Assembly (NCBI GenBank): GCA_963920705.1
Contig: OY987225.1
Span: 8,907,210-8,971,209 of the forward strand
Direction: 5' to 3'
DNA length: 64,000 bases
Source: Odiellus spinosus
Lineage: Eukaryota; Arthropoda; Arachnida; Opiliones; Phalangiidae
Shown: in pieces, positions 2,498 through 55,289 of the stretch
Position numbering within the stretch: position 1 is the stretch's first letter
How the letters are laid out: each line of letters begins with the position of its first letter
The notes under the pieces: generated by a model
The model's input: the letters and a program-made list of their open reading frames with translations, nothing else
What the model was told of the DNA's origin: nothing
Databases searched by the model: none
Program-made: the position numbers and the translations under genes

Positions 2498-2515
2498 TTG
2501 GTGATAGAGGTGGTT
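2498..2515 (+). other. Primer-binding-site-like sequence of gypsy element 1
   Basis: TTGGTGATAGAGGTGG follows the LTR end immediately. The TTGGTG start and position are usual for a gypsy primer binding site complementary to a tRNA 3' end. The exact tRNA was not determined. Confidence 0.5.
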
Positions 2516-2662
2516 GGGCTAGAAAACTGTTGGGTTTTCTTTTATCGGTTTTTATTTGAGATGACTTTTTGACGGTTTATGTGTTTTGTCTGATCCTAGG
2601 TTGGTTTTTATTATGGTGATTTCCCTTTTTAGCTTGTAGTTTTTTTTAGTTTTATTCCTTTT

Positions 2663-3640: not shown

Positions 3641-4609
3641 CCATCTAATATTAACCCTGTGCGTTTTCGTCAAAATATTTTAAATATGATTTTTAGTTTG
3701 CCGACTCTCTATGCTCACGTTTCCGTTGTGTTACCAAATGGCCGAAATTTATCTTGTTTATTAGATTCAGGTTCTGACCTTTCACACTTTAATGAGGACA
3801 TTTGGACATCCCTGTTTCCAGATTGGCTGCCTTCTTCAGACCGTCCCCTTGTTACCATGGCTGATGGGTCTTCTCAGGTTCTGTTGGATAGACGACACAT
3901 TTGTCTTAAAATTAAGAATCACCCCTTTTCAAATGAGTTCTCATTGATCGAGAACTTAGTTGAACCTGGTATTCTTGGACGTGATTTCTTAATTAATCAT
4001 GCGGTAACAATGGATTACGACTCCGGTACAGTTACATTGGGTAAGCGGTCCCAAATTACCATTGCCTTCGATAAAGGTCGTAATGAGACCCCACTGTGTA
4101 ATGATGAGGACTTTGAGGCGGAAATAGAAAAAGCTATTTCTCGTACTAAATTGTCAGCTCCCCAGTGTCAAGAGCTACGGTGTCTTTTACGTAAATTCCC
4201 TTCAGTATTTTCTGCGAAGCCTGGGTTAACGTCTTTAACTCACCACGTTATTAATACTGGTGATGCTGCACCAATTGCTTTAAAACCCTATAGAGTCTCG
4301 CGTTTAAAGGAACGCCTCATTGAACGCCACATAGAGGAAATGCTTGACAATGATATTATTGTTCGCTCACAAAGTCCTTGGGCGTCCCCTGTAGTAGTAG
4401 TCCCAATGAAACTACCTTTGTATGAATGTGACGAAAGTGCTCCAGTGAGTTCGTTTAGTCGGTTTTATGTAGACTTGCGGCGTCTTAATGCAGTAACGAT
4501 TCGGGACCCTTATCCTATTCCTCGCATTGATGATCTTATAGATGTCCTGGGTCAACCTACCTTTATTACCACTCTGGACTTGCGTTCCGGTTTTATCTCA
4601 GGTTTTTGA
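3641..4609 (+). pseudogene. Protease and N-terminal reverse transcriptase of gypsy element 1
   Basis: An aspartic protease is marked by LLDSGSD near 3755-3780 and the downstream ILGRDFL motif near 3972-3995. It is followed by the N-terminal fingers of reverse transcriptase, with SPWASPVVVV near 4372-4405, FYVDLRRLN near 4463-4490 and TTLDLRSGF near 4567-4600. Coding then jumps directly into the last part of RNase H. The palm with the YLDD catalytic motif is missing, so polymerase function is lost. The deletion joint is near 4600-4610. Confidence 0.85.
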
Positions 4610-6000
4610 TTTTGAAATCCTGTATAATCGTGGTTCCGTTAATGTGGTTGCCGATGCTCTATCTCGGGCCCCAGTTGATTGCCCCTCCCCTTTTTTAGAC
4701 GACCTGAATGAAGATAGTTGGTGATGACCTCGGTTCTAACACAATTATTCTTTCACCCCATCAAGATGGAAAAATTTTTGCGGTACGAGCCTGCATTAAT
4801 ATTTCGGATGTCGTGACATCTCCATCAACATTGTCTCAACAGGAAATTCGTGAACACCAAATAACTGATGCTCGGTATGGGAATATATATGAAGCTCTAA
4901 CCATTGGTAGCCCAGACGGGAGAAACCCTGTTCCTGACCAGCACCAATACTCTATACATGATAATATTTTATACCGAAAATTGGCTCCAGCGCTGTTCAA
5001 GATAGTACTCCCCAATACATTAATCCCTAAGGTTTTAAACCTTATTCATGACCACCAATACTCTGGTCATCTTGGTATAAAGAAAACTTGCCAGCGCCCA
5101 GTTCCAGTTCTGGTGGCCGAAGATGAAGTGATATTACTAAGTATGTACGAAGCTGTTTGATTTGTCAGCAACGGAAACCTCGTAACACCTTAAAGCCTGG
5201 CCCGATGCAATGTACTGTAGTCGATGGTCCTTGGTCAATGGTTGGCGTGGATTTGATATGATCCCTCCCACTATGTAATAACCGTAATCGTTTTTTATTA
5301 GTTTTTACCGACTATTTTTCTAAATGGGTCGAGTTTGTTCCTTTACCCATATCTACACCAGCTACAATTGCCGATGCTTTGGTTTCACGTGTGGTTCGGC
5401 AATGGGGTAGCCCCGTTCGTCTCCTTAGTGATAATGGCCCTCAGTTTATTTCTGAGTTATGGCGTACTACATGTGAAAAGATGAATATTCAGTGTACGTA
5501 TACCTCTCCGTATCATCCACAGACCGATCAGACTGAACGGGTTAATCGGGTTATTGGCGACATGATCAGTTCTTATGTGGGTAATAAGCATACTACTTGG
5601 GATGTTAATTTACCTTTATTTCAGTTGGCGTATAATAGTGCCCCTCACGAATCTACCGGACATTCTCCGTTCTTTATCAATCATGGACGGGAAGCACGTT
5701 TCCCATGGCTGGAAGCAGCTTTTAATCCTCGTTTACAGGGTAATCCAGACCAAGTACAGGTCTATATCCGAGATGTTATTGCCCCTATGCAAGCTACCCT
5801 GGATGATGTTCGCCATAATATTACTCGTTCACAGGAAAGGCAACGACATTATTATAATAACTCTAGGATTAGTTGGGAACCTGCGGTTGGTTCATTTGTT
5901 TGGAAAAAAACCCACCCAGTATCAAAAGCAGCGACGGGATATTCAAAAAAATTGGCACAATATAAACGGCATTTACCATCCACTCGAAATGTTGAATTTG
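4610..6000 (+). pseudogene. RNase H tail and integrase of gypsy element 1
   Basis: The block opens with the conserved RNase H end (VNVVADALSRAP near 4640-4670). The zinc-binding H2C2 region follows, with its histidines near 5050-5075 and cysteines near 5150-5165 in shifted frames. The integrase catalytic core has FTDYFSKWVEFVPL near 5308-5350, LLSDNGPQF near 5424-5450, YHPQTDQTERVNRV near 5511-5553, and a GSFVWKKTHP tail near 5889-5918. Stops at about 5158 and 5260 and frame changes disable it. Sequence after about 5950 no longer resembles integrase, marking the 3' truncation. Confidence 0.85.
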
Positions 6001-6198
6001 TATATACCGCACTCCCTCGCGTAAATTATCGCTATAAACCAAATCATTACTTATTTTACAAAAGTATAATTAAATTATTTTATTAAAATCTTTAGGGATC
6101 TCCGAGTAATTAACGTGATGATTAAAAGTAATTTTAATACGTATCAAATAATGCTGTAGTATAGATATCACTACCGTATAAAAAGTTTATTTAGTCTT

Positions 6199-7053
6199 AT
6201 GTTGGAATTTTTTGGTCATTTTGCTCGAGTTAATCAAGATTTGAATCCTCCAATTTCCGAAGTCGAGTTGATTGCCACTCTCAAAAGAAACCTTAGGACG
6301 GAAATAAAACAGTTATTGGTCTTCATGGAAGCTAAATCAGTCTCAGAGTTACATCATCATTCCTTAAGAATTGAACAAACACTCGGACTTTTTCCAACAA
6401 AGAAGGAGAAAAATGAAAACACTTCTGCCGACATTTCAGAAAAAAACATGAGAGAAACTCCAAAAACAACATCAGCCAAGACCTCAATACCTATTAGTGT
6501 CTCAACATCGACACCGGGATCCTTGGTTCCGATAGCTACAGATGTAACAACGGAAGGAACATTTGCAACACCGTCTCCACCAGTTAGACCTCAACTACCG
6601 AGTGGAATCGGTCCAATGAGCCCCTATGGAGTAGCCTGGTCACATTACGAGACTTTCCCTAGCGGGAATGAGTCAGAGAACGACCCATATCCCGCACCGA
6701 TAAGTCCTTTTATGTATTTGCCATGGGCATTTCCAGGCATGGCTCCCCAATATACACAACAGCCAAATGTAACCTATTCTCATTTTCATCCGGGTCTTTC
6801 AACAGAATACCCTCCACGAGCTAATAATCCAAGTCAACAAAGAGGAAGAGGTTACGATAGAAACCGAAGACAGCAAAATTCTAGTTCAAATAACGCCAGA
6901 CCAAGAGCGCTTCCCCCAACGGGAACTCGATACCAATGTCCCCGGGGAAATACCACAAGAACTTTTCAGCCCTCAAGTAATCCTAGAAATGAAATTACGT
7001 GTTTTAACTGTAACGGAATCGGACATTTGGCCAGGAACTGTCCTTCCCCATGA
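6199..7053 (+). pseudogene. Gag of gypsy element 2, 5'-truncated
   Basis: The ORF starts inside a capsid-like helical domain, so the ATG at 6199 is probably internal. A long proline/serine/threonine-rich linker follows, then an RG/RN-rich basic patch near 6840-6910, and a single CCHC zinc knuckle (CFNCNGIGHLARNC) near 7011-7045, the usual nucleic-acid-binding end of gypsy gag. The frame ends at 7053. Protease coding resumes in another frame, which could be a programmed shift or decay. Confidence 0.75.
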
Positions 7054-7189: not shown

Positions 7190-9675
7190 TAAACGAAGGA
7201 GGAGATATTAGAGACTTCCTCATATCATTTCCGTTGTTTTCGAACATGGAACAATACCTACCCGATTAGACAATGGAGCGGAAGTTTCAATGATTAGTAT
7301 CGAACAATGGAGAGAAATAAAGAAAAAACGAGGCGAAGAAGAAAATTTTGCTCCCAATGAGAAAGTGACGGAATGCATTATAATGGGAGATGGTCACTAC
7401 ACTTTTACGAAAGGATCTATTAAACTGAACTTGCGAGATAAAATTCGAAAATGGTGAATCAAGAAAATTCACTTCAAGAGTTCCACATAATCCCATCTTT
7501 ACTCTGCGATGCTATCCTAGGACAAGACTTTCTAGAAGATTGGAAGGTAATTATGAATTTTAAGGACAAATCTTGTCACATCAACGGAGCTACTTTGAAA
7601 TTTCCAGACCTCCAAAAAGATAAAGGCCCACCTTCCCCTCAAATTGTTCAAAACGTCAATGAAGCGATTGATAGAACTAAACTTCCAATGAGATATAAGA
7701 AGGAATTACAGGAATTACTCCTCCGTTTCCCAGATTTGTTTAGCAATAAATTTGGAAGAACTAACCTAGTAGTTCATGAAATCCACACTGGAAATGCAAA
7801 GCCAGTTACTAAGATGCCGTATCGAGTGAGCGACCGAAAGAAGGCGATTATCGAACAGCACATTTCCGAAATGTTGAAAGATGGAATAAATAGACCTTCT
7901 ACGTCTCCATGGGCATCTCCGATTGTTATAGTAGAGAAAGATGATGGATCCGGCACTGGAAAGATCAAAACTAGATTCTGTGTGGATTTAAGAGGAGTAA
8001 ATAAAGTAACAGAAAAAGATCCCTACCCAATACCACGGATTGAAGAGACATTAAATAAGTTGGGAAAGCCAAAGTATATTACTGCACTCGACTTAAAAAG
8101 TGGATACTGGCAAGTAGAAATGTGTCCAGACTGTGCACCAAAACCGCTTTCATTTTCCATGCTGGGAAATATGAATTCCATGTTCTCCCGTTTGGTCTAA
8201 CTGGAGCTCCATCGACCTTTCAAAGGCTGATGGATGAAATATTTAGAGACGGAGAACCCTTCTCTATAGTGGTGTACTTAGATGACATTTTGATTCCCTC
8301 CGAGACCTGGGAAGATCATAAAAATGCACTGGAATATGTGATTCATCGTCTACAAAATGCTGGACTCACGCTACAACTGAAGAAATGTCGTTTCGCTCAG
8401 TCAGAAGCTACCGTACTTGGACATGTAGTGAGCGGAGCGGGTATCCACATAGATCTGTCAAAAATAGAAGCGATAACGAATTTCCCAACACCGAAAAATC
8501 TAAAACAAGTTCAACGTTTCCTGGGAATGGCGGGATGGCATCATAGATTCATTCCGAACTTTTCTACAATAGCTGCTCCAATAAATAAGCTGAAGAAAAA
8601 GGGAACACCTTTTAAATGGGGTAAAGAGCAGGAAGAATCATTCCGGAAATTAAAAGAAGCCATCAGTTCTGCTCCGCCATTAGCCGCCTATAGACCTGAA
8701 CTTCCCTGTATTTTAACAACTGACGCATCAGATTTGGGACTCGGAGCTTTTTTAACACAAATTCAGGATGGAGTGGAAGTCCCAATTGCTTATGCCAGCA
8801 GGAGCTTGAGAAATGTTGAACCAAAATATTCAACATCTGAAAAAGAATGTCTAGCCATATATTGGGCAATAAATCATTTCCGACCGTATCTGGAAAGTAA
8901 ACCATTTACAGTAGTCACGGATCACAAGGCGCTAACCTTCGGTATGAAAGAACCGAATTCTCGACTTGTAAGATGGGCCATGTATCTTCAAACCTTCGAT
9001 TTTAAAGTCCAGCATAAGAAAGGAGTCGAGAACGTAGTCGCTGATGCTTTATCCAGAGCTCCTTTGGCATTACTAGCTATGGCCAGGTTCTCCAGCTCGT
9101 CTTCCGAATTGGAATCAGGGGAATTAAGAAATTCATCGGAATCGTCGGACGAAGGAACAGATAGATCAGTGATCGCCCATGTTATACCTCCATACCCGCA
9201 TGCCAATTACCATATCTTTGACCAAGACGAGATAATCGCAGCTCAAAGGGAGGACCCGGCTATGGAAGGATTAAGAGAACACTTCGATCAAGAAAATCCT
9301 CCCCCACACCCCAAGTTCGAAATGAAAAATCAATTAATCTATAGAAAAGCCACCGAAGCGAGACCATCCAGAATTTTCTTACCAACAATATTGCGTCGAG
9401 AAGTCTTTCGACTGCTACATGACCATCCCTTAGCAGCGCACCGAGGAAGGCATAAGACGATAGAAAGAGTTGGACATAGATTCTGGTGGCCGGCAATGTT
9501 AAGAGACATTCGAACGTATATCCGTGAGTGTGTCCTCTGTCAACAGTACAAAATCAGTAATCGAAGAAGGCCTGGATTAATGATATCAACCGAAGCAACC
9601 TCACCTTGGGATAAAATTGGAATAGACATTATGGGCCCTTTCCTAGAAGCCGACGAGGTTATAAATATCTTCTAG
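7190..9675 (+). pseudogene. Protease, reverse transcriptase and RNase H of gypsy element 2
   Basis: The protease core is seen at 7262-7300 (RLDNGAEVSMIS; the usual DSG triad reads DNG) and ILGQDFLEDW near 7515-7545. RT follows, with SPWASPIVIV near 7905-7935, RFCVDLRGVNK near 7974-8010 and ALDLKSGYWQ near 8083-8112. A one-base frame change near 8135-8150 precedes LPFGLTGAPSTFQRLMDEIF and the catalytic YLDDIL at about 8275-8292. RNase H spans roughly 8700-9060 (TTDASDLGLGAFL, STSEKECLAIYWA, TDHKALTF, NVVADALSRAP). An acidic linker and the integrase H2C2 zinc region (H..H near 9420-9445, CVLCQQ near 9531-9545) follow. Only a few lesions are present, so this copy is younger than element 1. Confidence 0.9.
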
Positions 9676-10513
9676 TATTTACAGATTACATGACAAAATA
9701 TGTTGAACTAGTTCCACTCAGGAATATATCTGCGGAAACTAGCACCAAGGCCTTAAAGAACGTCGTCTGCAGGTGGGGAGCACCGAAACAAATTTTAAGC
9801 GATAGAGGGACTTAATTCGTTTCTACACTCTGGAGAGATACCTGTAAGCTCTTCAGGATAAGTCCCATTCACACGACTCCTTATCATCCTCAATCAGATT
9901 TGACGGAAAGAGTAAACAGAGTCTTGGGAGAAACAATTTCCATTTATGTTGAAAACAATCACCGAACATGGGATGAAACTCTAAATGCTCTAGCTTTCGC
10001 GATAAATTCAGCACCGCATGATACGACAAAAATATCTTCATTCTATTTGAACATGGGTCGAGAACCGCGATTACCCTGGGATCTGGAAATAGGAATGCCA
10101 GTCGAAGAGTTGGAGGACAGGAGTCCCACTATAAAGGAATTAAAAAGACAATGGGCTCTAGCCAAAGAATTCTCCAGGCTAGCTCAAGAAAAGCAGTCGG
10201 AACGTTATTGTGGAGATTAACGCACCCTCTATCAAGAGCTGAAGAAGGACAGATGGCGAAATTAAGTCCTAAGTGGTCTGGTCCATACAAAATCATCGAA
10301 AAAATAAGTCCCTTGGTCTATGTTCTGGAAGATGTCATCACTAAGCAAAATATTGGAGCGATTAAAATTGATCAACTAAAGTTATATCATACCAAGGAAG
10401 TTCCCCTTGGGGAAGATCAACCTCCCCAAAGACCCGAGTCCGAAGATACGGAAGTTCTCCCACGAGAAGAGAGAGTATTAGCTCCAGAATCAAGTGGGGA
10501 ACCAAGAGTATGA
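9640..10513 (+). pseudogene. Integrase core and C-terminal domain of gypsy element 2
   Basis: A frame change near 9650 leads into the integrase core: FTDYMTKYVELVPL near 9680-9720, ILSDRG near 9791-9808, and YHPQSDLTERVNRV near 9882-9923, which supply the D,D,E residues with the upstream GIDIMGP at 9619-9639. An in-frame TAA at 9813-9815 interrupts the core. After another shift near 10200 comes RLTHPLSRAEEG and a GPY-type C-terminal module (KWSGPYKII near 10272-10298). No chromodomain is seen after it. The frame ends in TGA at 10511-10513, overlapping the next ORF by ATGA. Confidence 0.85.
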
Positions 10514-11056
10514 TGATCCGGAAGAGAACAAGAATCACATACGAAATTATTCCTGAAACGGATTCTGATCAATTAAGAAGAAACTTGAGACCAGAACCTA
10601 ATCTTGAGGAAACTATTCCGAAAAGAAGATATGAACCAGAAGAACCCTTGCCAGAATTAAGCCCTATTCCCTCAGAGGAAGACTGGGAAAAAAGATTCCC
10701 TTTAGAAAGTTCCTCTCAGGAAGAAATGGTCCCCGAAGAAGGAAGGGCAAATCAGAAGAGACCAGTCCATGGGTCAAGATCGTCCTATTCCGGAAAACCA
10801 ACTAAGAAAAAATCGAAGGGCATCGATCAAGAGGAAAATGACAAAGCGAGGTTCCTTGAAGAAACCTTCTCTCAAGGAGAATTAAAAGCCAGGGAAGAAA
10901 AACGAGTTAAAACAAAAAGACCCGTTCACGCCCTTAGTTCTTCATCCTCATCTTCCGGAAAACCTCAAAGGAAAAAGTCAAAAGAGGATAACCCGAAAGA
11001 GGGTCTGAAGGCAGACAATACCAGCATTGACGTTCAACCCTCTACGTTTACTCCTG

Positions 11057-12556
11057 GGAGGCTATTCTCTAACTTCATTCGGATCGAAAGCTGCTCGAAT
11101 CATTCGGAATTCGCGTTGTCTGGGCCAAAAATACAAATAAGCGTATTCTGAAGGGCACGAATGCGAATCATTCGGTTCGGGTTGATTCGAACCATTCGGC
11201 GGCCGATAGAGCCGTCCGAATCAAGTTTCCTCTCTTTTTGAGTGTTTTCCTCCTTTTTTTCAGCCCCGTTTTTCCTCGTCTCAAGGTGATTGTACGTAAA
11301 ATTTAACCGCCATGTTTCTTCAACTTCAAATCAAAATAATCAAATTTGCGGCAATAAAAATAACTACCCGTGGTCAATTAAGTAATTAGAATTGTATCTT
11401 AAACGTGTCGATTGCGTGGGGGCCCATCTATTTACGTTTATGTTAGATTTTTCGGTTGAATAGGTAAGGTTAACGAGTCAATATTTTTGGCCTTGGTTGA
11501 TAAAACCCGGCTCCGTCCCAAGGTTGGTAGTCTAGAGATATTTGCTGGCTCCGTCCGACGGTCCGAGGCTCTTGCCAATAATTTTCAATTTGACCGTCGA
11601 ATTTTGACGGAGCTTCGAGAATTTGGACCCGGGCGGCTACCAATATTTTAAGCGTAAACGTATACCAACTTGCCGGCGATTTTTTTGTTAGTCAATAATT
11701 ATACGTTTATCGCTAATTGATTGTATTTATTTAAAATTAAATCTAAACATTTTAAGTTTAACGGTAGATGATTGCTTTTATTTTAAATTAAATAACATAA
11801 AAGTTTAACGCTAGATGATTGAATTTATTTAAGATTGATATTAAATCTAATAATTAAAAGTCTAGTACGCTAGATGATCGGATTTAAATTCAATTAATAT
11901 TAAATCTTATGATTTGGAGCACTACTTTGAATTACTGTTTTTATTACGTATCAAATTTCTTTCATGAAAGGATTCTTCTAGATAAATACCAACGATTGGT
12001 AATTTTATTGCCATCTAAATTTAAATTAAAATGGTTATTTAAACCAATGGTATTATGAAAACCATATAAACTACATTAGTCTGAAATTACCATTTTACTT
12101 AAACGTTTATTGAATGAAGAAACCGTATTCCTATACTAACCCTTAATTTCAAATAAGTTTACACTCTCAGTTTCATTAAATTTAAATAATAAAAATAACT
12201 AAGAGGCATATTCATAATTTGATCAATATAATAATGCTAAATTTCCCAAGAAATCAAACACATTTGATCGAGTTGAATAATGTCCCAAAAATATTATTTT
12301 AAAAATCTAAATATGTTTAAATATTCCCGCCCGAATTCTGACCAATAAGAGAGAAATAATACCTCGCGATCTCCTACTTTCTCCACATAAAAATGACGTA
12401 CACTATGATTCGGATTCGGGCTCGAAGGGATCCGAATCAGCATTCGAATAAGGGTTAGAGAATAGGCTTTTTTGTACCCAACCCGAATGAAGGCGATGCG
12501 AATGATTCGAACTCTCCGAATTCGAATGCTTCGGATTTTTTTAGAGAATTGCCTCC
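11057..12556. mobile_element. 1500-bp non-autonomous TIR element
   Basis: The left end GGAGGCTATTCTCTAA and right end TTAGAGAATTGCCTCC are inverted copies (one mismatch in 16). The flanking CTG at 11054-11056 and 12557-12559 is a 3-bp target duplication. Excluding the element and one CTG restores frame continuity of the host ORF, which confirms the boundaries. The subterminal 150-200 bp on both sides carry many CGAATCATTCGG-like words in both orientations; the centre (11650-12300) is AT-rich with no gene. Three-base duplications and subterminal repeats would suit a CACTA-type or related superfamily, but the termini are not CACTA, so the superfamily is open. Confidence 0.85.
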
Positions 12557-12858
12557 CTGAACTACCGAGAACGAAAAGGGATGCCTCCTCTAGCTCTTCA
12601 GATAAACCAGACCAAAAGCGAAGGAAGCAAAAATCCTCGAGTTCCTCGGTATACGATGTATCTCTCATAGAGAAAGGACGAGAGATCCTAAAACGAAATG
12701 CAGGACGACTTTCTAAATATAAAAGGAAAGGTTCACCAAAGTCGGACTCAACAAACGTTCCAAAAAGGAAAACACGCAGAGAAGAGGAATCAGAAGGGGA
12801 AGATCAAAGAGATGAGGAAGAAGAAATTCAGGAACGCCCGCCACCCAATTATGACGCG

Positions 12859-15800
12859 AGTAGTTTAAGACTGTACAACAAGACTAAAATAAACAAATGA
12901 CGTCATCAAGTAAACAAATTTGCATAAGCCACGCCCCCAAAATAAACAAATTTGCATAATTAGCCCCGCCCCCAAAATCAACAAACAGCTTATCCGTCAA
13001 CAAATGACGTCATATGTCAACAAATTTGCCTAATTAACCCCGCCCCCAAAGGCTACAAATTTGCATCATACACGCTCCCTAAGGCTACAAATTGGCCTAA
13101 TTAGCCCCGCCCCTAAGGTAAACAAATTTGCATAATAGCCCCGCCCCCAAAATAAACAAGGAAGGGGACATCTTTCCACCCCCTCCATCAACGTATTAGC
13201 CTAATGGGCCCCACCCGGAAAGTCCACAAATTACCCTACATAACCCGCCCCATAATCAATATTAAAGGGACAGTGACACCAAAAACGTTTTTTTCGTTCG
13301 TCTTCATTGGTAGAAATAAAGGGTTTCGAATGCCTATCAGGCGAGTCAGCCAAGGTCAAATGATACGAATGTGGTTCTTTTGTTACCCACGTACAAATGA
13401 CCACTGAATCGCCCTCTGGTAGGGGCCTTCTGTACTCGTGACCTCCCTGGTTAGACCTATTTTAAACATGTTTTACCCAATTTTGACTGATTTTTCAAGG
13501 TTTTTCATTGGTGTATACAACTTGTGACGTCATAAGATCAATTGGTGTGTATTGTGACCTGTTGAAAAAGCAATGTTATTCACCCTTAAGACTGGACACG
13601 ATTATTTTTAATTGTTAACTCTATAATACAATGATGATATATCTGAAGTAGTGTCACTCCATGTCGTATCGGTCTTGTTATATTTCCTCTACAATCCAAG
13701 GTTGTAAGTCCAACGTGGGAAGGAAGATAGAGATCTTCGGTTTGTACAGAAGCTTCCATTTGTGAGGATATATCTCTGAGATTATCCTAGGCTGCAATCC
13801 AACGTGGCAAAGGTGTTAAAAACATTCTTCTCATACAGAACCTTTCAATTGAAAGGTTTTGAACTTTTGGATATATTTAAAGAGAGAATGCAGCACCGAA
13901 AGGTATCCCAATTTTGAAACTATATTTAAAGGGTTCGGGGCCTGATTATATTATGGGAAACAAAGTAAAATAATGTTATGAGGGAGGATGAGGGTTGTTA
14001 ATTAGAGTTAAACTGCAATACCTTACCTTTGTAATGAACTTTAAACGGGATTGGTAGTCGTAAAGTTCCATCAAGTTGTTGTTTTGTCTTATGGACTTGA
14101 CCATCTTGTTAAACTCTTTTTGATGAAGATGATGCAGTTAATTATTATGGTAAGAGTTATGAATTCTTGATCTTTGAAAGGTATCATAATCCAATGAGCT
14201 TATATTCTTCGACCTGGATTATCCATTGTGTGAAAAAATGTAAGGTTTCGTTATAAATGTCATTTAAAACAATTTCAGTCCTTACTAGAATAGATTTTTT
14301 TAATTATTTTATCCAAACTCAAATCCCGTTTTTCAAATCTAAGTGATTTTATACAGTACAGTTTTAACAATAGTTTAATTTTCCCAAAGCCTTGTAGAAA
14401 AATTAAAATATATTTTGGGTACGGTGTAGAAAAGCATCACAATTTAATTAAATGATTCGATTGTATAAAATTGATTGGAAAAATGACATTGTATATTTAT
14501 GGAAAAGGGTTAAGGTGTAATAATATCTCGTTACATCTTTGATTGTTCGGGAGTAACATAAGATTAAAGTTAAATTGTTTCCTTCTATTTCCCTTAAATT
14601 ACATCTGTATTTTTCCATACAATTTTAATATAAGTTTTAATGATTTTGGCTCAATAGAATTAGTGAACTTTGTAGTAAAATAATAGAAAATCAAAACATC
14701 CGCTAAAAGTAGCTATTCTTTCGCGAGAGATATAACACTAAAGTAAAAACATTTTTGTCTAGCTTAAACCACTCACGATTTTCAGGTGGAACAGTTACTT
14801 TAGATAATCAAAACTACATGACCCGTACTCGAGTAAATCACTGAAACTGACTACTTACTATAATTTTGTAAAAAGGGGTTTCCAATTTAACATATTACTG
14901 ATATTTGGTTAATTTGGACGGGACTATAAAGTATAAAAAATTATGGTTTTCGAGTGGAAACTACCTCTTCAATCTAAATACCATAACGAAGTATATAGAA
15001 ACCTCGCGGCGCTTTCAAGGTCTTTCTACGTGTTTAATCTCTTAATTTTCTACATCTAAGGTAATCGTGCGAGTATAGAAATACTTTTAAAATATTTAAA
15101 TGGTCACTGTAGCTTTTTCATAATAGAACGAAAATTATTAGCGGAATGCATTTTATAAAATTATAAAGTAAACAAAAAAGCTAGAATATTGTAACTTACT
15201 TCAAAGATCCACACAGGCTATATATTGTAAAATTAAACTATGATGTATTACACGCTACAATCTTTTTGATTCTACGAAGTTAAGGCTTCTTTTCCAGGAC
15301 GTGTCAATTATCCCCCTGAGGTTTATAAAGAAATATCTAATACTTTTCAAAACTAAAATTATTTGTTAGTAGTTATCATTCATTTACAAGCAAGAAACCC
15401 CGTTTCTAGGTGAAGATGTTTGAGAGCTTTTGTTAAATATAATTGTATTCACGCGGGACTTAATACACCTAACCACTTGACCAGTCAGCTCTGATTTACT
15501 AGTAACGACATTTTCAGACTTATAAGAGATGATTAAAATCTAGCGGTGTCTGGAAATATAATTAGGCTATACTATAAAAACAACTTGATAACATGTTAAC
15601 CGTTACCAGGCTATGCTTCTACAGTTACCTAGCATTACTTTGTGAAATAAATATCATCATAATCATAATGAACAAATATCGGTTCAAGTAAAATCTAAAC
15701 CTACTACTTCCCGAAAAAGAGATCAAGCTAAAACTGATTTGAAGCTATATATGGCGTCTCGTTCCGAAAAAAAAATTTACTTGATTTTAAAACTGGTTCT

Positions 15801-18800
15801 TAATAATCGCATTCCAAGAGAACAGTTTCAATCTGGTATTTGATCAATTTTAACTACAAAACCCGTTGAAACAGTACTGTTGCACAATATATCGAAAGAA
15901 TTTATGGTATGTGTTTAAAATACACGTAAAATATAATAAAAGCGAATGGATGCATGAATCAAATATGTAAGCGAAATACCGAAGAAAGGGAAATTTAAAG
16001 CTCTAGGCGTTGGCTTGAAACTTGGCCATGGAAATACCAATGCGTTTAAAAGTGTTAGTGACTTAATTTTTAAAACAAGCTAATTCAAAACAGTCTTTAA
16101 ACAAAATCTTCAGTTAAAAATAAAAATTTATTATTATTATTCCAACTTTATTATTTGCTACCGCAGAGAGAATAATTTCCAAGGTGTACGTTTTATATAG
16201 AGGTCAAGGATCGCGTTGAGTAGGATTTTAAAATTCAATAATGTAAAACAAAAGTTCAAATATTTTACCCGTGAAAAATTTCATATCGGCTTGAGCACTG
16301 CCTAGAATTAAAGACCAATTCTCAGTGATTGACAAAGCTTAGAGAAAAATGTCATAAGAAAAGAATGGTCAGTTAAAAGTGTTAAATTTACAAAACTATA
16401 CTTAAAGTTTTTCTACTTTCCAACTCGGAGATCGAGACTGTCACATCGCAAAACTAGTAACTAGCGTAAAACTCCCATTCTAAAAAATGGTTGTAGCCCT
16501 AAGATATAAAATTAAGATATAAAATTCCAAAAGAGTTGCATTCTCTTTAGAAATGTCTCAAATTATAAGGAATGTATGAATAATAAATATGTTTGGGATA
16601 TATATATCTCTAGGTGTTGGCTGGAGCCACGGCCATGAAATAACTACGTAAAAGAGCTGGTGAGTGAGTGTTTTCTTAAACAAGACAATTTGCGCATTCT
16701 TTAAGAAAAAATTCAGTTTATTCAATAAAAATTCATAAAAAACTACATTAATTAATAGTTGATGACAGAGAAGTTCCGATGTGTACGATAGAATTTAGAG
16801 CTCAAAGAGCGCGTTGAATCTAGATTTCTTTTATATAAGAACGCCTGACACGATTTCAAACGCATGCAATATATGAATTACAGAAAAGAGATCGAGAAAT
16901 TTACCATATATTTGTAAATACCTTCTTGGATCCACTTTACACTAAAAGCCAAACGTTCACTAAATAGTGTGTATAAAATATTAAAGCCCTAAAAAAGATG
17001 AGGTTGCTTGTTCGGGATACTTCGGGCAAACTTTATCCCGTCAAAACACTTTCAAAAATTAATTTTTTATTTAAAAAGCGAGGCACACATTCCGTATATA
17101 TCTACGTTCTTACAATGTTGATTTAATATTAACTATCGCTTTGAAGTCTTTAAACTATAATAGAGAAGGAATTATATCGATAGTTTCTGTATGTATGTGT
17201 TTCAAGACGAAATTGTCTAAAAAGTAAGACGGCTTTCGACCAGAACTTCAACGGCATTAGTATTGTTTCATAGGTTTATGTACAAAGAAACAACATTTTG
17301 GTGAAACTTAGACTGTTTCTTTAGACAAATTTTATTAATCCGTAGCAGTGTCTTAAATTAATTTAATTATATTCTTACATGTGTTGTTATTCTTCACACA
17401 TAAAAATAAAAACGTTCGCTGCCAACTTATAAACGGAGCCTTTATCAAAAATTGGCGTGATATACCTGGATTGGGAAATCACCGAAACTGGTTTTTTGAG
17501 TCTTACTGGGAGAACAGGGAAGGACAAAGAAAGTGTTCAAAACTAATTAGTATTATGATAGGCTTGTAATTTTATCTCAAGACAAAACAATAAGTTTATC
17601 CTTGGTCCTTCTAAAAAAAGAGCGAGGGTGGGTCGACATTTATATTGACCAGTTTGAGAATGACCTCCGCAGAAATTCTCCAACGAAACCACGCTATTAC
17701 ACTCGCAAGCTCCGAGATTCCAAAATTGAATAGAAACTATTGCAAATAATTTAATGAAAACGAGACTTTTGTCTCCAAACGTTTGTATCCTGTAGGGTCG
17801 AGTCCGTACGTTTCTGGCGCACACCTATCACAGTTTTAGCCAACTACATTAGGTTTACAAGTACATTGTCCTCCTAGATTAGCTCAAGAGGTACTGACTT
17901 ATCCCGGTGGTTCGAAATTACATTCTGTTATGAATTGAATGAAGCCTTAGTATTTCCTTAATTTCATTTAATCAAGCATTTGAGATTTTTACCATGCGCT
18001 TGTCCGTAAGCGTAAAATCCAATACTGTACAAGTATTTCTTGCAAACATCGGGAAGTATTGATCTAATTACGCCGGAAAAGGCTTGCCCGTAACGGACCT
18101 TTCGTATTCTTGTCTTCTATGCATGTTCATCGGAGTGCCTTGGAAGAATGGAATACTGTCTGTTCTCGGGATCAGCGCGATCTATTACAAGAAGATATTT
18201 TTGAAACTGTGTCACTTTGGACACTATAAAACGACTCATTTCTTACGGAACCGTTCAAAATGGAAGCTGATGGTGTATCGATTTGCGAATTGTATTGTTT
18301 GAGCTCTTAGTTTACTAAAGTTAAGCAGAACCTAGAAAATATTCTTGAATCTAATCCGTATCATATCTGGCACATACAACGCCTTTCTTTGAAACACTCA
18401 AATCCGAGAATATTTTAGCCTGATATTCATACAAAATCGATTTATAACACTATTTATAATCCTTTCAGCTTAAGTAAATTGGCAAAGTACTTTACTCGTA
18501 AAAAGTACATATTAGAAGTTCCCCTTACAAGATCTTCATTAAAACTAAACTCTATTCTCTGTAAATATACAAAAATTTAATGATATAAATCCTCCCACGA
18601 ATTTAAGCCTTGGCATGAATAAACTTTGTTTTTTCTATTTCATCTTAGAAAAAATTTAACTAATCTTATCAAATTAACGATAAATTATGGGATATCAATC
18701 CAATTTTCATTAATCTTCACATAACTCTTGTACGGCCTTAAAGTAGTTTTACGACTTGGCCTTTCTAATCTAATGTTGTGTAAAAATTGGAAACCAATAA

Positions 18801-19086
18801 AATATTATTATTATTATTATAAACTATCATTGGAACCTGAAACCACCACATATTTGAGCCAATATCAATGTCCGAGTTAATGATATACCGATTATCTGAA
18901 GACCAATTTGGAGCAAGAGTTAAAGTTGCCCAAAATATATTTTAAGTGAATAGTTGATTTCATTTCTCAACGTCTCGATTGGGTAGTATGTGACTGCAAA
19001 GTACGATAAGGCTTGGTACATCGCATAAATACTAGAGACATTTAAAGAAGAAAACGACTTTTTAATGAAGTTTACGAAAGAGACTG
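12859..19086 (+). repeat. Left arm of the giant inverted repeat
   Basis: The arm is the reverse complement of 20268-24580 over its length, apart from segments present only here: roughly 13667-15505 (about 1.84 kb) and 17031-17195 (about 165 bp). These explain why this arm is longer. Open frames at 17381-17569, 17543-17824 (minus) and 18084-18302 are mirrored in the other arm because of the repeat, not because of proven coding selection. Confidence 0.85.
12889..13262 (+). repeat. Left subterminal array with CRE, octamer and GC-box words
   Basis: Seven to eight degenerate units of about 45-50 bp are built from CAAATTTGCATAA, then TAGCCCCGCCCCCAAAA. The words are recognisable transcription-factor sites: TGACGTCA (CRE) at 12898-12905 and 13005-13012, ATTTGCAT (octamer) in several units, and CCCCGCCCC (GC box) in most units. 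Whether they are bound is unknown; the sequence shows only the words and their regular order. Confidence 0.75.
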
Positions 19087-20267
19087 GGCATAATAATCGG
19101 TCGGGCAGCCTCTCGGTGAGGACATATCTCATGTGCCTCTTAACTTCATTCTATGCATAGTTTTAGATCACACATTCACTGTTTCTAGGAATAAAACCTT
19201 TAAACTTAAAGAAACAGATTTTGAAATTATGCATTCATTACTGCTGAAAGATGAATAAAGGACCATAATATATTTTTATAAGATATTTTCTGTTCCTTAA
19301 TGTAGATAGTTTATAATATTCTAATAATCAGTATTTGGACCAGCAAATGTAGAACACTTACTTACCCCAAAATATTTTTTGGTCAATATAATTACAGTTC
19401 CTGGGATTCGTAGTGATATTAATATAGGTATATGATTTTAGCACTTCGCAGGGTTCCACATGTAGCCGACCAAAAACATGTTTTCGTTTTTCGCATTATT
19501 CAACTGAATCCGCAAATTTTGAGAATAATTTGGGCATTATCACTCGATTCTCCACATTCCTTTCCGTAAGAGACCTAGTTTTCATATAGCTATAATGATT
19601 AGCTTAAAAGTCATTCAAAATGTTGTTTTTCCTAGTCGAAAATAGACTCAAAATCTCCTCCATTTTAACTCATAGTTTCCCTTTACATAGCCCATATTCA
19701 CTCAAACTTCGAAGAAAAGAAATTAAAATCTTGGTTCGCGTAGTCTATTTTACGTAAAATATTAACATTCTAAAACCCGAATATCTTAACAAACATTGAT
19801 TATTAATGAAAGTTACTTTTGAGGAAATACTTGTCCAGATGATAAGGTTTTCAAGCACCCAAATTTCCGTAAAACGAAACCAATCAGCACCAGTAAAAAT
19901 GAATTAAATATTATACTATTGAAATTTATAAAAATTTAATTAGATTTAATACAATAGTCATATTAAATTTACACTTTTTTAACATTGATATCTCCCAAGG
20001 ACCATAGCTTTACTTTTTGAAGAGTGAGCTATACGCTTCAAAGATTACTTAAAACATCTTTACCTGATACAGTATTTTCATACCTTATTCTTTCGAATAA
20101 CTAGCCGGGAATTTGAGCTCTTTTCTTATGCCTGATTAGTTTCATCGTGAAGGCATTTTTACAAACACCCAAAAATCTTTTAATAATAAGAATAATCAAT
20201 CTTATTAAGTTCCCTTTGGATATATTCGATGCGTTATAAATACTTTCGCTTTTAACATTTTTTCTCT
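19087..20267. other. Central loop of the giant inverted repeat
   Basis: This AT-rich stretch lies between the innermost matching arm sequences (TTTCGTAAACTTCATTAAAAA on the right, its complement on the left). No gene, repeat array or RNA gene is seen in it. Confidence 0.6.
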
Positions 20268-20518
20268 CTCTTTCGTAAACTTCATTAAAAAGTCGTTTTC
20301 TTCTTTAAATGTCTCTAGTATTAATGCGATGTACCAAGCTTTATCGTACTTTGCAGTCACATACTACCCAATCGAGACGTTGAGAAATGAAATCAACTAT
20401 TCACTTAAAATATATTTTGGGCAACTTTAACTCTTGCTCCAAATTGGTCTTCAGATAATCGGTATATCATTAACTCGGACATTGATATTGGCTCAAATAT
20501 GTGGTGGTTTCAGGTTCC

Positions 20519-20550
<32 letters not shown>

Positions 20551-21561
20551 TAATAATAATAATATTTTATTGGTTTCCAATTTTTACACAACATTAGATT
20601 AGAAAGGCCAAGTCGTAAAACGACTTTAAGGCCGTACAAGAGTTATGTGAAGATTAATGAAAATTGGATTGATATCCCATAATTTATCGTTAATTGGATA
20701 AGATTAGTTATATTTTTTCTAAGATGAAATAGCAAAAACAATGTTTATTCATGCCAAGGCTTAAATTCGTGGGAGGATTTATATCATTAAATTTTTGTAT
20801 ATTTACAGAGAATAGAGTTTAGTTTTAATGAAGATCTTGTAAGGGGAACTTCTAATATGTACTTTTTACGAGTAAAGTACTTTGCCAATTTACTTAAGCT
20901 GAAAGGATTATAAATAGTGTTATTAATCGATTTTGTATGAATATCAGGCTAAAATATTCTCGGATTTGGTATATATCTAAAATTTTGAGTGTTTCAAAGA
21001 TAGGCGTTGTATGTGCCAGATATGATACAGATTAGATTCAAGAATATTTTCTAGGTTCTGCTTAACTTTAGTAAACTAAGAGCTCAAACAATACAATTCG
21101 CAAATCGATACACCATCAGCTTCCATTTTGAACGGTTCCGTAAGAAATGAGTCGTTTTATAGTGTCCAAAGTGACACAGTTTCAAAAATATCTTCTTGTA
21201 ATAGATCGCGCTGATACCGAGAACAGACAGTATTCCATTCTTCCAAGGCACTCCGATGAACATGCATAGAAGACAAGAATACGAAAGGTCCGTTACGGTC
21301 AAGCCTTTTACGGCGTAATTAGATCAATACTTCCCGATGTTTGCAAGAAATACTTGTACAGTATTGGATTTTACGCTTACGGACAAGCGCATGGTAAAAA
21401 TCTCAAATGCTTGAATAAATGAAATTAAGGAAATACTAAGGCTTCATTCAATTCATAACAGAATGTAATTTCGAACCACCGGGATAAGTCAGTACCTCTT
21501 GAGCTAATCTAGGAGGACAATGTACTTGTAAACCTAATGTAGTTGTCTAAAACTGTGATAG

Positions 21562-21843
21562 GTGTGCGCCAGGAACGTACGGACTCGACCCTACAGGATA
21601 CAAACGTTTGGAGACAAAAGTCTCGTTTTCATTAAATTATTTGCAATAGTTTCTATTCAATTTTTTAATCTCGGAGCTTGCGAGTGTAATAGCGTGGTTT
21701 CGTTGGAGAATTTCTGCGGAGGTCATTCTCAAACTGGCCAATGTAAATGTCGACCCACCCTCGCTCTTTTTTTAGACGGACCAAGGATATACTTCTTGTT
21801 TTGTCTTGAGATAAAATTACAAGCCTATCATAAAACTAATTAG
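21562..21843 (+). pseudogene. Laminin-EGF-like half motif inside the giant repeat arm
   Basis: The frame carries the spacing C-x-C-x9-C-x8-C-x-C with TGQCKCRP, the pattern of the first half of a laminin-type EGF module. The second half (the cysteines after the GxxC turn) is absent; the frame runs on into unrelated residues. The mirrored copy in the left arm (17543-17824, minus strand) has tyrosine in place of the fourth cysteine. It could be a captured host exon fragment or chance. No splice acceptor was convincingly placed. Confidence 0.25.
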
Positions 21844-24212
21844 TTTTGAACACTTTCTTTGTCCTTCCCTGTTCTCCCAGTAAGACTCAAAAAACCAGTT
21901 TCGGTGATTTCCCAATCCAGGTATATCACGGCAATTTTTGATAAAGGCTCCGTTTATAAGTTGGCAGCGAACGTTTTTATTTTTATGTGTGAAGAATAAC
22001 AACACATGTAAGAATATAATTAAATTAATTTAAGACTTTGCTACGGATTAATAAAATTTGTCTAAAGAAACAGTCTAAGTTTCATCAAAATGTGGTTTCT
22101 TTGTACATAAACCTATGAAACAATACTAATGCCGTTGAAGTTCTGGTCGAAAGCCGTCTTACTTTTTAGACAATTTCGTCTTGAAACACAGTTTGCCCGA
22201 AGTATCCCGAACAAGCAACCACATCTTTTCTAGGGCTTTAATATTTTATACACACTATTTAGTGAACGTTTGGCTTTTAGTGTAAAGTGGATCCAAGAAG
22301 GTATTTACAAATATATGGTAAATTTCTCGATCTCTTTTCTGTAATTCATATATTGCATGCGTTTGAAATCGTGTCAGGCGTTCTTATATAAAAGAAATCT
22401 AGATTCAACGCGCTCTTTGAGCTCTAAATTCTATCGTACACATCGGAACTTCTCTGTCATCAACTATTAATTAATGTAGTTTTTCATGAATTTTTATTGA
22501 ATAAACTGAATTTTTTCTTAAAGAATGCGCAAATTGTCTTGTTTAAGAAAACACTCACTCACCAGCTCTTTTAATTACGTAGTTATTTCATGGCCGTGGC
22601 TCCAGCCAACACCTAGAGATATATATTTCCCAAACATATTTATTATTCATACATTCCTTATAATTTGAGACATTTCTAAAGAGAATGCAACTCTTTTGGA
22701 ATTTTATATCTTAATTTTATATCTTAGGGCTACAACCATTTTTTAGAATGGGAGTTTTACGCTAGTTACTAGTTTTGCGATGTGACAGTCTCGATCTCCG
22801 AGTTGGAAAGTAGAAAACCTTTAAGTATAGTTTTGTAAATTTAACACTTTTAACTGACCATTCTTTTCTTATGACATTTTTCTCTAAGCTTTGTCAATCA
22901 CTGAGAATTGGTCTTTAATTCTAGGCAGTGCTCAAGCCGATATGAAATTTTTCACAATATAAGAAGGTTATTTTCATAACATAGCTTTATTTTAGTTTCT
23001 TTTAATTTCACGGGTAAAATATTTGAACTTTTGTTTTACATTATTGAATTTTAAAATCCTACTCAACGCGATCCTTGACCTATATATAAAACGTACACCT
23101 TGGAAATTATTCTCTCTGCGGTACCAAATAATAAAGTTGGAATAATAATAATAAATTTTTATTTTTAACTGAAGATTTTGTTTAAAGACTGTTTTGAATT
23201 AGCTTGTTTTAAAAATTAAGTCACTAACACTTTTAAACGCATTGGTATTTTCATGGCCAAGTTTCAAGCCAACGCCTAGAGCTTTAAATTTCCCTTCGGT
23301 ATTTCGCTTACATATTTGATTCACGCATCCATTCGCTTTTATTATATTTTACGTGTATTTTAAACACATACCATAAATTATTTCGATATATTGTGCAACA
23401 GTACTGTTTCAACGGGTTTTGTAGTTAAAATTGATCAAATACCAGATTGAAACTGTTCTCTTGGAATGCGATTATTAAGAACCAGTTTTAAAATCAAGTA
23501 AATTTTTTTCCGGAACGAGACGCCATATATAGCTTCAAATCAGTTTTAGCTTGATCTCTTTTTCGGAAAGTAGTAGCCTTTAGCAGGTTTAGATTTTACT
23601 TGAACCGATATTTGTTCATTATGATTATGATGATATTTATTTCACAAAGTAATGCTAGGTAACTGTAGAAGCATAGCCTGGAAGTGTGAGAAAGTGTTTC
23701 AAATTGCACGGTTAACATGTTATCAAGTTGTTTTTATTATATTTCCAGACACCGCTAGATTTTAATCATCTCTTATAAGTCTGAAAGTGTAGTTACTAGA
23801 CATGGAGTGACACTACTTCAGATATATCATCATTGTATTATAGAGTTAACAATTAAAAATAATCGTCTCCAGTCTTAAGGGTGAATAACATTGCTTTTTC
23901 AACAGGTCACAATACACACCAATTGATCTTATGACGTCACAAAATGCATACACCAATGAAAAACCTTGAAAAATCAATCAAAATTGGGTAAAACATGTTT
24001 AAAATAGGTCTAACCAGGGAGGTCACGAGTACAGAAGGCCCCTACCAGAGGGCGATTCAGTGGTCATTTGTACGTGGGGAACAAAAGAACCACATTCGTA
24101 TCATTTGACCTTGGCTGACTCGCCTGATAGCCATTCGAAACCCTTTATTTCTACCAATGAAGACGAACGAAAAAAACGTTTTTGGTGTCACTGTCCCTTT
24201 AATATTGATTAT

Positions 24213-24555
24213 GGGACTTTCCGGGTGGGGCCAATTAGGCTAATACGTTGATGGAGGGGGTGGAAAGATGTCCCCTTCCTTGTTTATTTTGGGGGCGGGG
24301 CTATTATGAAAATTTGTTTACCTTAGGGGCGGGGCTAATTAGGCCAATTTGTAGCCTTTGGGAGCGTGTATGATGCAAATTTGTAGCCTTTGGGGGCAGG
24401 GTTAATTAGGCAAATTTGTTGACATATGACCTCATTTGTTGACGGATGCGCTGTTTGTTGATTTTGGGGGCGGGGCTAATTATGCAAATTTGTTTATTTT
24501 GGGGGCATGGCTTATGCAAATTTGTTTACTTGATGACGTCATTTGTTTATTTTAG
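24213..24555 (-). repeat. Right subterminal array with CRE, octamer, GC-box and NF-kB-like words
   Basis: This is the mirror image of the left subterminal array. It contains TGACGTCA at 24534-24541, several ATGCAAAT octamers and GGGGGCGGGGC boxes. At its inner edge is a consensus NF-kB/Dorsal-type word GGGACTTTCC at 24213-24222 (the left arm has the one-base variant). Units are partly decayed here (for example GGGGGCATGG). Confidence 0.75.
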
Positions 24556-24939
24556 ACTTGTTGTACAGGCTTAAACTACTGACGCGGAAAGTGATTCATC
24601 TTCCCCTGGCGGGGAATTCCCTTCTCTTAGGGATGAAATTCCCACAAATTACGAGAAACCTTACAAAAAAGGATGGTTTAGGGAAATCTGCTATAGACAT
24701 ACAGTTCACCCAAAAATCGTTTCTTTCAATGTATATTATTACCCATCCGGACCAAAACCTAAACGGTTACGTTCCCCCAGGGAAGTTAAGGCCTACTTGA
24801 ATTCAAAAAACCTTATAGATTTAAAGGTCGAAGATTTTGACTTTAACCGACATCCCATTGCCAAACCCCCATGGGAACGAGTTCGTTTCGCGAAAAAACG
24901 AAAGACTTAATTAACTAAATTCAGATATTTTACTTTTAG

Positions 24940-27201: not shown

Positions 27202-27270
27202 CTTTTTAAAACTTCTTCGTTAAAAGAATAACTTTTGTTTATTTTCAAAAAAAATGAAAATAAAAGGTTT

Positions 27271-27281
27271 GGGTGGGAGAG
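27271..27281 (+). other. Polypurine tract of gypsy element 2
   Basis: GGGTGGGAGAG directly precedes the LTR start, the expected place and composition for the plus-strand primer of a gypsy element. Confidence 0.65.
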
Positions 27282-27722
27282 TGCAACAGGGCGCAAACAA
27301 TTTGAAAAGCCCGCCATCGTATAAGCCCAGTAAGGTTGGTGGCGCCCTCTTGCGTTTCCCCGCCCAAAACTTTCCTTGCTATGACAAAAATGAAAAAGTT
27401 CAGTTTCTGTTGTGACTCGACTGGAGACTAGTCTCTCTCGACTTGGGTTAGGATTTTCTCTTTGAGAAGTTTGGAAGTAAGAGTTAATAAAAACTCAATA
27501 TTTAAATAATAAGGAATCTTTGGTGAAGGAATAAAAACGAACTTCGTTGAGCATAATTTTGGAAGTATTCTTTCTATAGAGAAGTCGATAATCAACTTAA
27601 CCATTGGCCAGTATGAAACCCAAGTACAAGGTGAGTAACCTTTAGGATTAGAACTAAGGAATTTAGGAAGATTAAAGTTAAACAAAAGAAATTGTAACAG
27701 TGAACTTGGGCTTCCTGTTACA
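27282..27722 (+). repeat. 3' LTR of gypsy element 2
   Basis: The 441-bp segment begins TGCAACAGG and ends CCTGTTACA, an inverted pair with one mismatch, right after the polypurine tract. It carries GC-rich U3-like sequence near 27290-27365 and AATAAAAAC-type words further on. The 5' partner is lost, so boundaries rest on the tract and terminal pair. Confidence 0.65.
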
Positions 27723-36175: not shown

Positions 36176-36459
36176 AGATGTTTGCGATGATTTCAGATTT
36201 TTTAGTTTTACCAGAGTTTCTCAAATTCAAATATTTTAAATTAGTACTTACTTCCCAGGTAGCATTTACACGTGTTGTATTGGTCGATATTTAGTCTCGT
36301 CGTCGATATTACGTGTAAAAACGTTATAAGCACCGTGCGGTTAAGGTGTAAATAGCACCATTTTCAAACATTCTAAAAAAAAAACATATTATAACGTTTC
36401 AAAAACGTTTAAATTAAAATAGAATGATGACGCTAAAAAAGAAACGTTTTTAAATCGTA

Positions 36460-55275: not shown

Positions 55276-55289
55276 TTTTAATGATCGAT

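What the first reader, a model, noticed from the sequence alone, without database searches (positions are those of the whole stretch)
10510..24910. A Ty3/gypsy element carrying a methyl-CpG-binding-like domain where env would be
The ORF overlaps the pol stop by ATGA, sits between integrase and the polypurine tract/LTR, and is uninterrupted by stops over 390 codons once two insertions are set aside. Its end has the MBD pattern (GWFRE, VYYYPSG, LRSPREVKAYL, FDF). Chromodomains are known in gypsy integrases; an MBD in a separate third ORF would be another way of reading chromatin or methylation, or of shielding the element from silencing. The function is inferred.
Basis: partly seen in the sequence, partly recalled or inferred. 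Interest (0 to 1): 0.9.

Follow-up and report, generated by a model that had tools for sequence, protein, structure and literature searches.

The report
Retrotransposon integrases carrying a DNA-methylation reader
A diverse, recently mobile family of jumping genes in this unnamed eukaryote genome carries, at the tail of the polyprotein that holds its DNA-inserting enzyme, a domain of the type that reads DNA methylation, which could steer new copies into silent chromatin.

Summary
The MBD is real (Pfam PF01429, E 5.4e-9), but it is not a third ORF. The window's own 443-Mb genome (150 matches, a lower bound) shows it as the C-terminus of one Pol polyprotein, behind the integrase core. Of 18 Pol C-termini scanned, 18 have integrase core and MBD. 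The window's "ATGA overlap" is a frame break in a decayed copy: its pieces map in order onto one Pol of a relative. The real third ORF lies downstream (24940-27201). The other gypsy fragment in the window belongs to a family of which the one member read also ends in an MBD. MBD Pols form one clade against 56 public relatives. Residues that contact methyl-CpG in MeCP2 are conserved, the MBD is under purifying selection, and one copy has identical LTRs. MBD copies cluster mostly apart from other gypsies, in regions whose few samples show CpG decay. The host has DNMT1-type exons and an SRA domain. Best reading: an integrase-borne methyl-DNA/chromatin reader guiding integration, a counterpart of the chromovirus chromodomain. 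Ligand and targeting are inferred.

The parts
2216..6083 (+). Element 1: another Ty3/gypsy fragment (5' end approximate; integrase core at 5262-6083; gag and protease-RT parts upstream by inspection, with weak Pfam scores), broken off before its Pol C-terminus; a member of its family carries an MBD elsewhere in the genome
   Evidence: rve E 2.4e-11; gag E 0.016, below cut-off; family member C8:6530874, 87% identical over the integrase, Pol ends in MBD, Pfam E 2.2e-10
6160..7050 (+). Element 2 gag fragment with CCHC knuckle (N-terminus and 5' LTR missing)
   Evidence: zf-CCHC E 7.1e-7; 73% identical to L042 gag
7442..10510 (+). Element 2 Pol, broken by stops and frame breaks: RT, RNase H, H2C2, integrase, SH3/GPY-type module
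   Evidence: Pfam; pieces 90-94% identical to one continuous Pol in L042
10510..11055 (+).
11056..12557 (.). Insertion 1, about 1.5 kb, short imperfect terminal inverted repeats GGGAGGC(T/A)ATTCTCTAA; target duplication not resolved
   Evidence: boundaries by inspection
12558..12858 (+). Pol linker, second piece
   Evidence: 12568-12858 is 86% identical to L042 Pol 1375-1471; codon-use test not decisive for this piece
12859..24580 (.). Insertion 2, 11.7-kb foldback element (AG...CT ends, arms 94-99% complementary), flanked by GACGCG at 12853-12858 and 24581-24586
24581..24910 (+). Last Pol piece, carrying the MBD (24653-24853), then the Pol stop
   Evidence: PF01429 E 5.4e-9; 85-94% identical to Pol C-termini of L042, L043, L046
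24940..27201 (+). The true third ORF of the element (broken into at least three frames here); charged, C-terminal C-X2-C-X5-H-X4-C motif, no Pfam match
   Evidence: 24940-25608 is 90% identical over 221 residues to the ORF after Pol in L046; Pfam none
27262..27722 (+). Polypurine tract (27262-27281) and putative 3' LTR (27282-27722; TGCAACAG...CTGTTACA)
   Evidence: By inspection; short similarity to the L065 and L067 3' regions; no second LTR found in the window

Best explanation
This is a decayed copy of a Ty3/gypsy LTR retrotransposon from a clade whose Pol has acquired a methyl-CpG-binding domain at the C-terminus, behind the integrase (shown). By analogy with chromodomain integrases it tethers the pre-integration complex to chromatin by binding DNA, most probably methylated CpG, so that new copies land in silent, methylated, repeat-rich regions (inferred). 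There an insertion harms the host little and hides among repeats. Shown: domain, position, clade, conservation, recent mobility, clustering. Inferred: ligand, tethering, benefit.
For: Domain order: 18 of 18 Pol C-terminal pieces (750 aa) have rve and MBD above cut-off; two further copies (L046, L050) have the MBD by a seed HMM that includes the window's own MBD. One side of a branch with SH-aLRT 99 (quick tree). Methyl-CpG contact positions (MeCP2 numbering recalled): R111 39 of 39, D121 37 of 40, Y123 40 of 40, R133 38 of 40 distinct sequences. dN/dS below 1 in 49 of 49 usable pairs of 190, median 0.27. MBD omega 0.10-0.18 in the 7 of 9 tested pairs where it could be computed. LTRs identical over 379/379 aligned bases in one copy, with a 4-bp duplication CCGT. 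Host DNMT1-type exons and SRA domain. Clustering: 19 of 33 intact MBD Pols lie within 1 Mb of a different MBD copy, against 12 of 100 intact gypsies found with a non-MBD query, Fisher p 5e-7. Element-1 family: 7 of 7 copies used lie within 1 Mb of an MBD copy; the 1,202-aa family without MBD 0 of 14. CpG o/e in those regions 0.76 against 1.44 outside (8 x 1 kb each, p 0.007), TpG+CpA 1.02 against 0.80 (p 0.007), GpC control p 0.51.
Against: No binding or methylation data. As a profile the MBDs match BAZ2B best (E 8.4e-10), a TAM-type domain, before MBD4 and MeCP2. The 64-kb window, which lies in an MBD-rich region, has CpG o/e 1.03, and 6.3 kb of flanks of four insertions pool to 1.01; fetched MBD elements themselves range from 0.57 to 1.13. 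No DNMT3 was seen. Two long open Pols (L049, L060) have lost R133. Clustering may reflect selective retention or segmental duplication rather than targeting, and 12 of 100 control gypsies do lie in the same regions. The CpG samples are few and were placed by me.
Confidence: 0.6

Rival explanations
1. The MBD is a chromatin tether of TAM type: it binds DNA (or RNA) without regard to methylation and acts as an extra nucleic-acid grip for the integrase complex, with location set by other means.
For: Best profile match is BAZ2B, then BAZ2A; [quoted passage not shown] the window DNA is not strongly CpG-depleted.
Against: R111, D121, Y123 and R133 are conserved together, whereas BAZ2A has K, E, W and K there; the element-1 family member read is closest to MBD2 (E 1.2e-7).
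Confidence: 0.25
2. The domain acts after insertion, not in targeting: Pol or a processed integrase-MBD fragment binds the element's own methylated DNA and blocks or competes with host MBD proteins, shielding the element from silencing.
Against: In the 20 copies fetched the MBD ends Pol, a position that favours a role in the integration complex; intact MBD copies are unevenly placed, which shielding does not predict.
Confidence: 0.1
3. A separate third ORF with MBD in env position, started by reinitiation at ATGA.
For: ATGA overlap in the window copy.
Against: Pieces map consecutively to one Pol; the 11 N-terminal residues do not align; long single Pol frames in several subfamilies.
Confidence: 0.01
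4. Clustering and CpG decay arise because copies survive only in gene-poor, old, low-recombination regions; the MBD has no targeting role. (This overlaps with the first two rivals, so the odds do not add up to 1.)
For: Chromo-domain hits also concentrate near MBD copies: 50 of 86 within 1 Mb against 33% expected; gypsies generally accumulate in heterochromatin (established knowledge).
Against: Gypsies of similar intactness without a nearby MBD hit mostly lie elsewhere: 12 of 100 within 1 Mb of an MBD copy.
Confidence: 0.3

Closest known systems
Chromoviruses (Ty3/gypsy with integrase C-terminal chromodomain)
   Same: A chromatin-reading domain at the C-terminus of integrase behind an SH3/GPY-type module; uneven chromosomal distribution (chromodomain hallmark and targeting read as passages in PMC3605345)
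   Different: MBD instead of chromodomain; no chromodomain among Pfam matches (E 0.01) of 18 of 18 Pol C-termini; predicted ligand is DNA/methyl-CpG rather than a histone mark
Bdelloid rotifer LTR retrotransposons with captured ORF3s (PMC5408684)
   Same: Elements that capture extra domains, including nucleases, downstream of pol
   Different: There the captures are separate ORF3s (GDSL, DEDDy, env-like); 'mbd' and 'methyl' occur 0 times in the main text; here the MBD is inside Pol
MBD/TAM proteins: MBD2/3, MBD4, MeCP2, BAZ2A/B
   Same: Domain family PF01429 and, against MeCP2 and MBD4, the contact residues
   Different: Here encoded by a mobile element and fused to Pol behind the integrase

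Membership tests
Ty3/gypsy LTR retrotransposons | Pol order RT-RNase H-integrase with gag upstream | tested here: met
Ty3/gypsy LTR retrotransposons | Paired LTRs and short target duplication | tested here: met
   Met in copies: LTR-type direct repeats in 6 of 8 copies examined, three of them cut by the fetched piece; clean 4-bp duplication read in one. Not met in the window copy, which is 5'-truncated
Chromoviruses | Chromodomain at integrase C-terminus | tested here: not met
   No PF00385 match in 18 of 18 Pol C-termini at E 0.01
MBD family (PF01429) | Profile score above Pfam cut-off | tested here: met
   Window 36 bits against 21; 18 of 18 Pols, lowest 22.7 bits in L054; element-1 family member 40.5 bits
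Methyl-CpG-binding MBDs | Arg-Asp-Tyr-Arg contact residues | tested here: met
   Met for the clade; the window copy itself has N for D121
Methyl-CpG-binding MBDs | Selective binding to methylated CpG | not testable with these tools
   Needs biochemistry
Env-type third ORF (errantivirus-like) | Transmembrane/fusion protein after pol | tested here: not met
   Best 19-residue hydropathy 0.96 or less in the window pieces of ORF3 and of the downstream ORF; no env family matched

The most novel reading that the evidence does not exclude
A clade of LTR retrotransposons evolved integration guided directly by DNA methylation: the integrase carries its own 5-methyl-CpG reader, so the host's silencing mark becomes the landing signal.
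Probability: 0.42. Interest if true: 0.95.

Novelty: new variant of a known kind. Interest (0 to 1): 0.86.

Why it matters
Chromodomain integrases are a well-known case of a retrotransposon that reads chromatin through a domain fused to integrase. An MBD in the same position would be an independent solution in which the mark read is on the DNA itself. If it binds methyl-CpG, it would make directly testable whether silencing marks attract the elements they are meant to restrain. It would also offer a natural integrase steered by DNA methylation. The full-text searches made here (open-access PMC only, several lists capped: 25 of 1,465, 20 of 24 and 15 of 58 shown) listed no paper that, by its title, abstract start or the passages I read, describes an element-encoded MBD.

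Tried and rejected
Searches outside this genome found no element with an MBD. Viral contigs was scanned with the MBD, the RT-integrase piece, an alignment of pols, and one MBD of another subfamily: no confirmed relative. Genome contigs with the single Pol piece gave none. With the alignment it gave 11 loci from bacterial and archaeal records, taken by me as contamination; none had an MBD, but most hold little sequence past Pol. Protein searches with the MBD gave no hit (E 0.001 and 0.01). 120 public Pol relatives (the best of 672) have no MBD match, but only lengths of 296-941 aa could be candidates, so full-length Pols were excluded. Rfam and tRNA scans of the window: nothing.

Rejected ideas: separate ORF3; env; element 1 as a family without MBD, which I first assumed and which proved wrong for the one member read. 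The repeat between the two linker pieces was too weak to use. Codon use supports coding for ORF3a and the MBD piece (0 of 500 shuffles each) but not clearly for ORF3b (34 of 500, and other frames score higher); for that piece I rely on its match to L042. An open frame in the window copy is not evidence of selection on that copy, whose Pol and downstream ORF are broken.

Limits. Tree: quick method, arbitrary root; 76 of 102 usable rows went in (26 lower-ranked public rows left out); it holds neither element 1 nor the own-genome families without MBD. In one search, 145 of the 150 rows were used (segments of one copy merged). Lack of an MBD is checked by sequence only for the 1,202-aa family: Pfam on the tail of L080, and L081 only read (same tail). 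The other control copies merely have no MBD hit nearby, and that query misses divergent MBDs such as element 1's. In one search the control was run with 17 copies, 3 of them not of the checked family; one search repeats it with the 14. The chromo figure uses the 86 of 149 rows on ten large contigs. The element-1 count uses 7 of the 12 rows at 81% or more (the window copy, its twin and three on small contigs left out); three of the seven lie within 33 kb of each other and may be duplicates. In one search the window locus is counted twice, because its rows differ in length.

Full report
What is in the window. The element runs from a truncated gag (6160) through a broken Pol to a putative 3' LTR ending near 27722. 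It is cut by two insertions. The second (12859-24580) is an 11.7-kb foldback flanked by GACGCG, which by inspection reads as the same two codons (Asp-Ala) in frame on either side. The end matches PF01429 with 36 bits, E 5.4e-9, cut-off 21. So the MBD is real and well above chance.

It is not a third ORF. The window's own genome (G000, 443 Mb) was searched with the MBD piece: 150 matches, all at E 5.1e-7 or better, 150 of 271 candidates scored. Of these, 33 lie in open frames of 1,081-1,707 aa. I fetched 20 copies. In 19 of 20 a single frame of 1,081-1,706 aa ends with the MBD, 11-23 residues before the end, 71 in one; the twentieth, L046, has 595 aa open. In the 10 copies checked, Pol lies in the -1 frame relative to gag. 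Pfam on the last 750 residues of 18 of these Pols gives integrase core and MBD in 18 of 18, with an SH3_Tf2-1/Integrase_p58_C match between them in 17 of 18, often below that model's cut-off. The window pieces fall in order on one protein of L042: integrase 943-1073 and 1084-1187, ORF3a 1200-1371, ORF3b 1375-1471, MBD piece 1470-1578; the first 11 residues of 'ORF3' do not align. The ATGA is therefore a frame break in a dying copy. The element's real third ORF is 24940-27201, 90% identical over its first 221 residues to the ORF after Pol in L046. In three copies of one lineage (L056, L058, L059) the third ORF is TatD-like (E 8.6e-22 to 4.6e-33), with residues of the YcfH motifs GETGLDY and ETDSP changed, so probably not a working nuclease (inference). 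The third ORFs of other lineages that were scanned have no Pfam match.

A clade. In a quick tree of RT-RNase H-H2C2 sequence, the 20 MBD rows (19 loci and the window) form one side of a branch with SH-aLRT 99 against 56 public relatives. Their MBDs are down to about 35% identical. The other gypsy fragment of the window was taken at first as an outgroup. A family member at C8:6.53 Mb (87% identical over the integrase) also ends in an MBD, E 2.2e-10, nearest to MBD2 (E 1.2e-7), whereas the profile of the others is nearest to BAZ2B (8.4e-10), then BAZ2A, MBD4 and MeCP2. A related family with Pols of 1,202 aa shows no MBD in its Pol tail (L080 by Pfam; L081 by reading).

Conservation and age. In 40 distinct MBD sequences the MeCP2 contact positions (numbering recalled) are R111 39 of 39, D121 37 of 40, Y123 40 of 40, R133 38 of 40. 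The exceptions at D121 are the window copy with its twin, and one copy with several stops; those at R133 are two Pols with long open frames. dN/dS in the MBD is below 1 in 49 of 49 usable pairs of 190 (139 saturated, 2 too close), median 0.27. In 7 of 9 tested pairs where it could be computed, MBD omega is 0.10-0.18, linker 0.11-0.82, an upstream integrase stretch 0-0.12. Of eight copies whose flanks were fetched, LTR-type direct repeats were found in six: 379/379 aligned bases identical with duplication CCGT in one, 221/221 and 140/140 in two where the fetched piece was cut, 99.4% over 671, 98.9% over 264 (cut), and 95.2% over 331 with one mismatch and one gap. No pair was found for two copies. 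The lineage has moved recently.

Where the copies lie, and host methylation. The host has DNMT1-type exons (motif GGPPCQGFSGMNRF; assignment by recalled motif), a DNMT2-like gene and an SRA domain; no DNMT3 was seen at this sensitivity. Intact MBD Pols lie within 1 Mb of a different MBD copy in 19 of 33 cases, against 12 of 100 intact gypsies found with a query without MBD (Fisher p 5e-7; on ten large contigs 12 of 23 against 8 of 60, p 5e-4). Among 88 MBD copies on large contigs, 81% have another within 1 Mb; random placement gives 60% on average and 80% at most in 2,000 trials. The 1,202-aa family has 0 of 14 copies within 1 Mb of an MBD copy (3.2 expected, P 0.017); the element-1 family has 7 of the 7 used (2.5 expected, P 0.0006). 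Chromodomain hits, whatever their source, lie near MBD copies in 50 of 86 cases (33% expected). Eight 1-kb samples from inside these regions have CpG o/e 0.76 and TpG+CpA 1.02; eight from outside have 1.44 and 0.80 (p 0.007 each); GpC does not differ (p 0.51). That is the footprint expected of germline CpG methylation. Against it: the window itself has 1.03, pooled flanks of four insertions 1.01, and the 20 fetched element stretches 0.57-1.13, so depletion is relative and patchy, and the samples are few. The DNMT1 and DNMT2 gene loci have 0.71 and 0.77, so depletion is not confined to the MBD-rich regions.

Mechanism. Shown: an MBD at the integrase end of Pol in a diverse, recently mobile clade, conserved at the residues that read methyl-CpG, in a host with maintenance methylation genes; uneven placement, in regions whose samples show a CpG-decay footprint. 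Inferred: the domain binds methylated CpG, tethers the integration complex, and so directs insertion into silent chromatin, as chromodomains are held to do for chromoviruses (passages of PMC3605345). Not shown: any binding, any targeting in new insertions. Survival bias in such regions remains a serious rival.

Novelty. PMC5408684 (passages) describes captured ORF3s in rotifer LTR elements, with 'mbd' and 'methyl' absent from its main text; PMC6338049 (first of four parts) names chromodomain and DnaQ-like exonuclease as accessory domains of LTR elements; PMC8885841 (passages) concerns host SETDB1 MBDs; PMC7998251 was seen in passages only. No listed paper appeared to describe an element-encoded MBD (searches, some with capped lists), but subscription journals and repeat databases were not searched. 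I place it as a new variant of a known kind: the architecture of chromodomain integrases with a different, DNA-reading module. It is not a chromovirus, since no chromodomain was found.

Noticed in passing
window 12859-24580: 11.7-kb near-perfect foldback with AG...CT ends and 6-bp target duplication, like Maverick/Polinton termini (recalled), but with no large ORFs; inserted into the Pol linker.
   Followed up: partly
window 11056-12557: 1.5-kb insertion with short terminal inverted repeats and unusually high CpG o/e (1.68 over 11076-12560).
   Followed up: no
G000:C1 around 8.9048 Mb, about 2.4 kb left of the window start: Window copy and element 1 both have 100% identical twins on the other strand mirrored about one point: a large inverted duplication with arms of at least 27 kb, or an assembly fold-back.
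   Followed up: no
L056, L058, L059 third ORF: TatD-like protein as third ORF of a Ty3/gypsy lineage, with catalytic-motif residues replaced compared with YcfH; a search for TatD with LTR retrotransposon terms showed 8 of 81 papers, none of the 8 containing TatD.
   Followed up: partly
L048 and relatives, and window 26155-27198: Third ORFs of two other lineages share a C-terminal C-X2-C-X5-H-X4-C motif (sequences); no Pfam match and only one hit, E 0.96, in the PDB for the L048 group.
   Followed up: partly
window 36425-37818, 54408-55331, 45277-45861: Tandem arrays with periods of 122, 156 and 157 bp.
   Followed up: no
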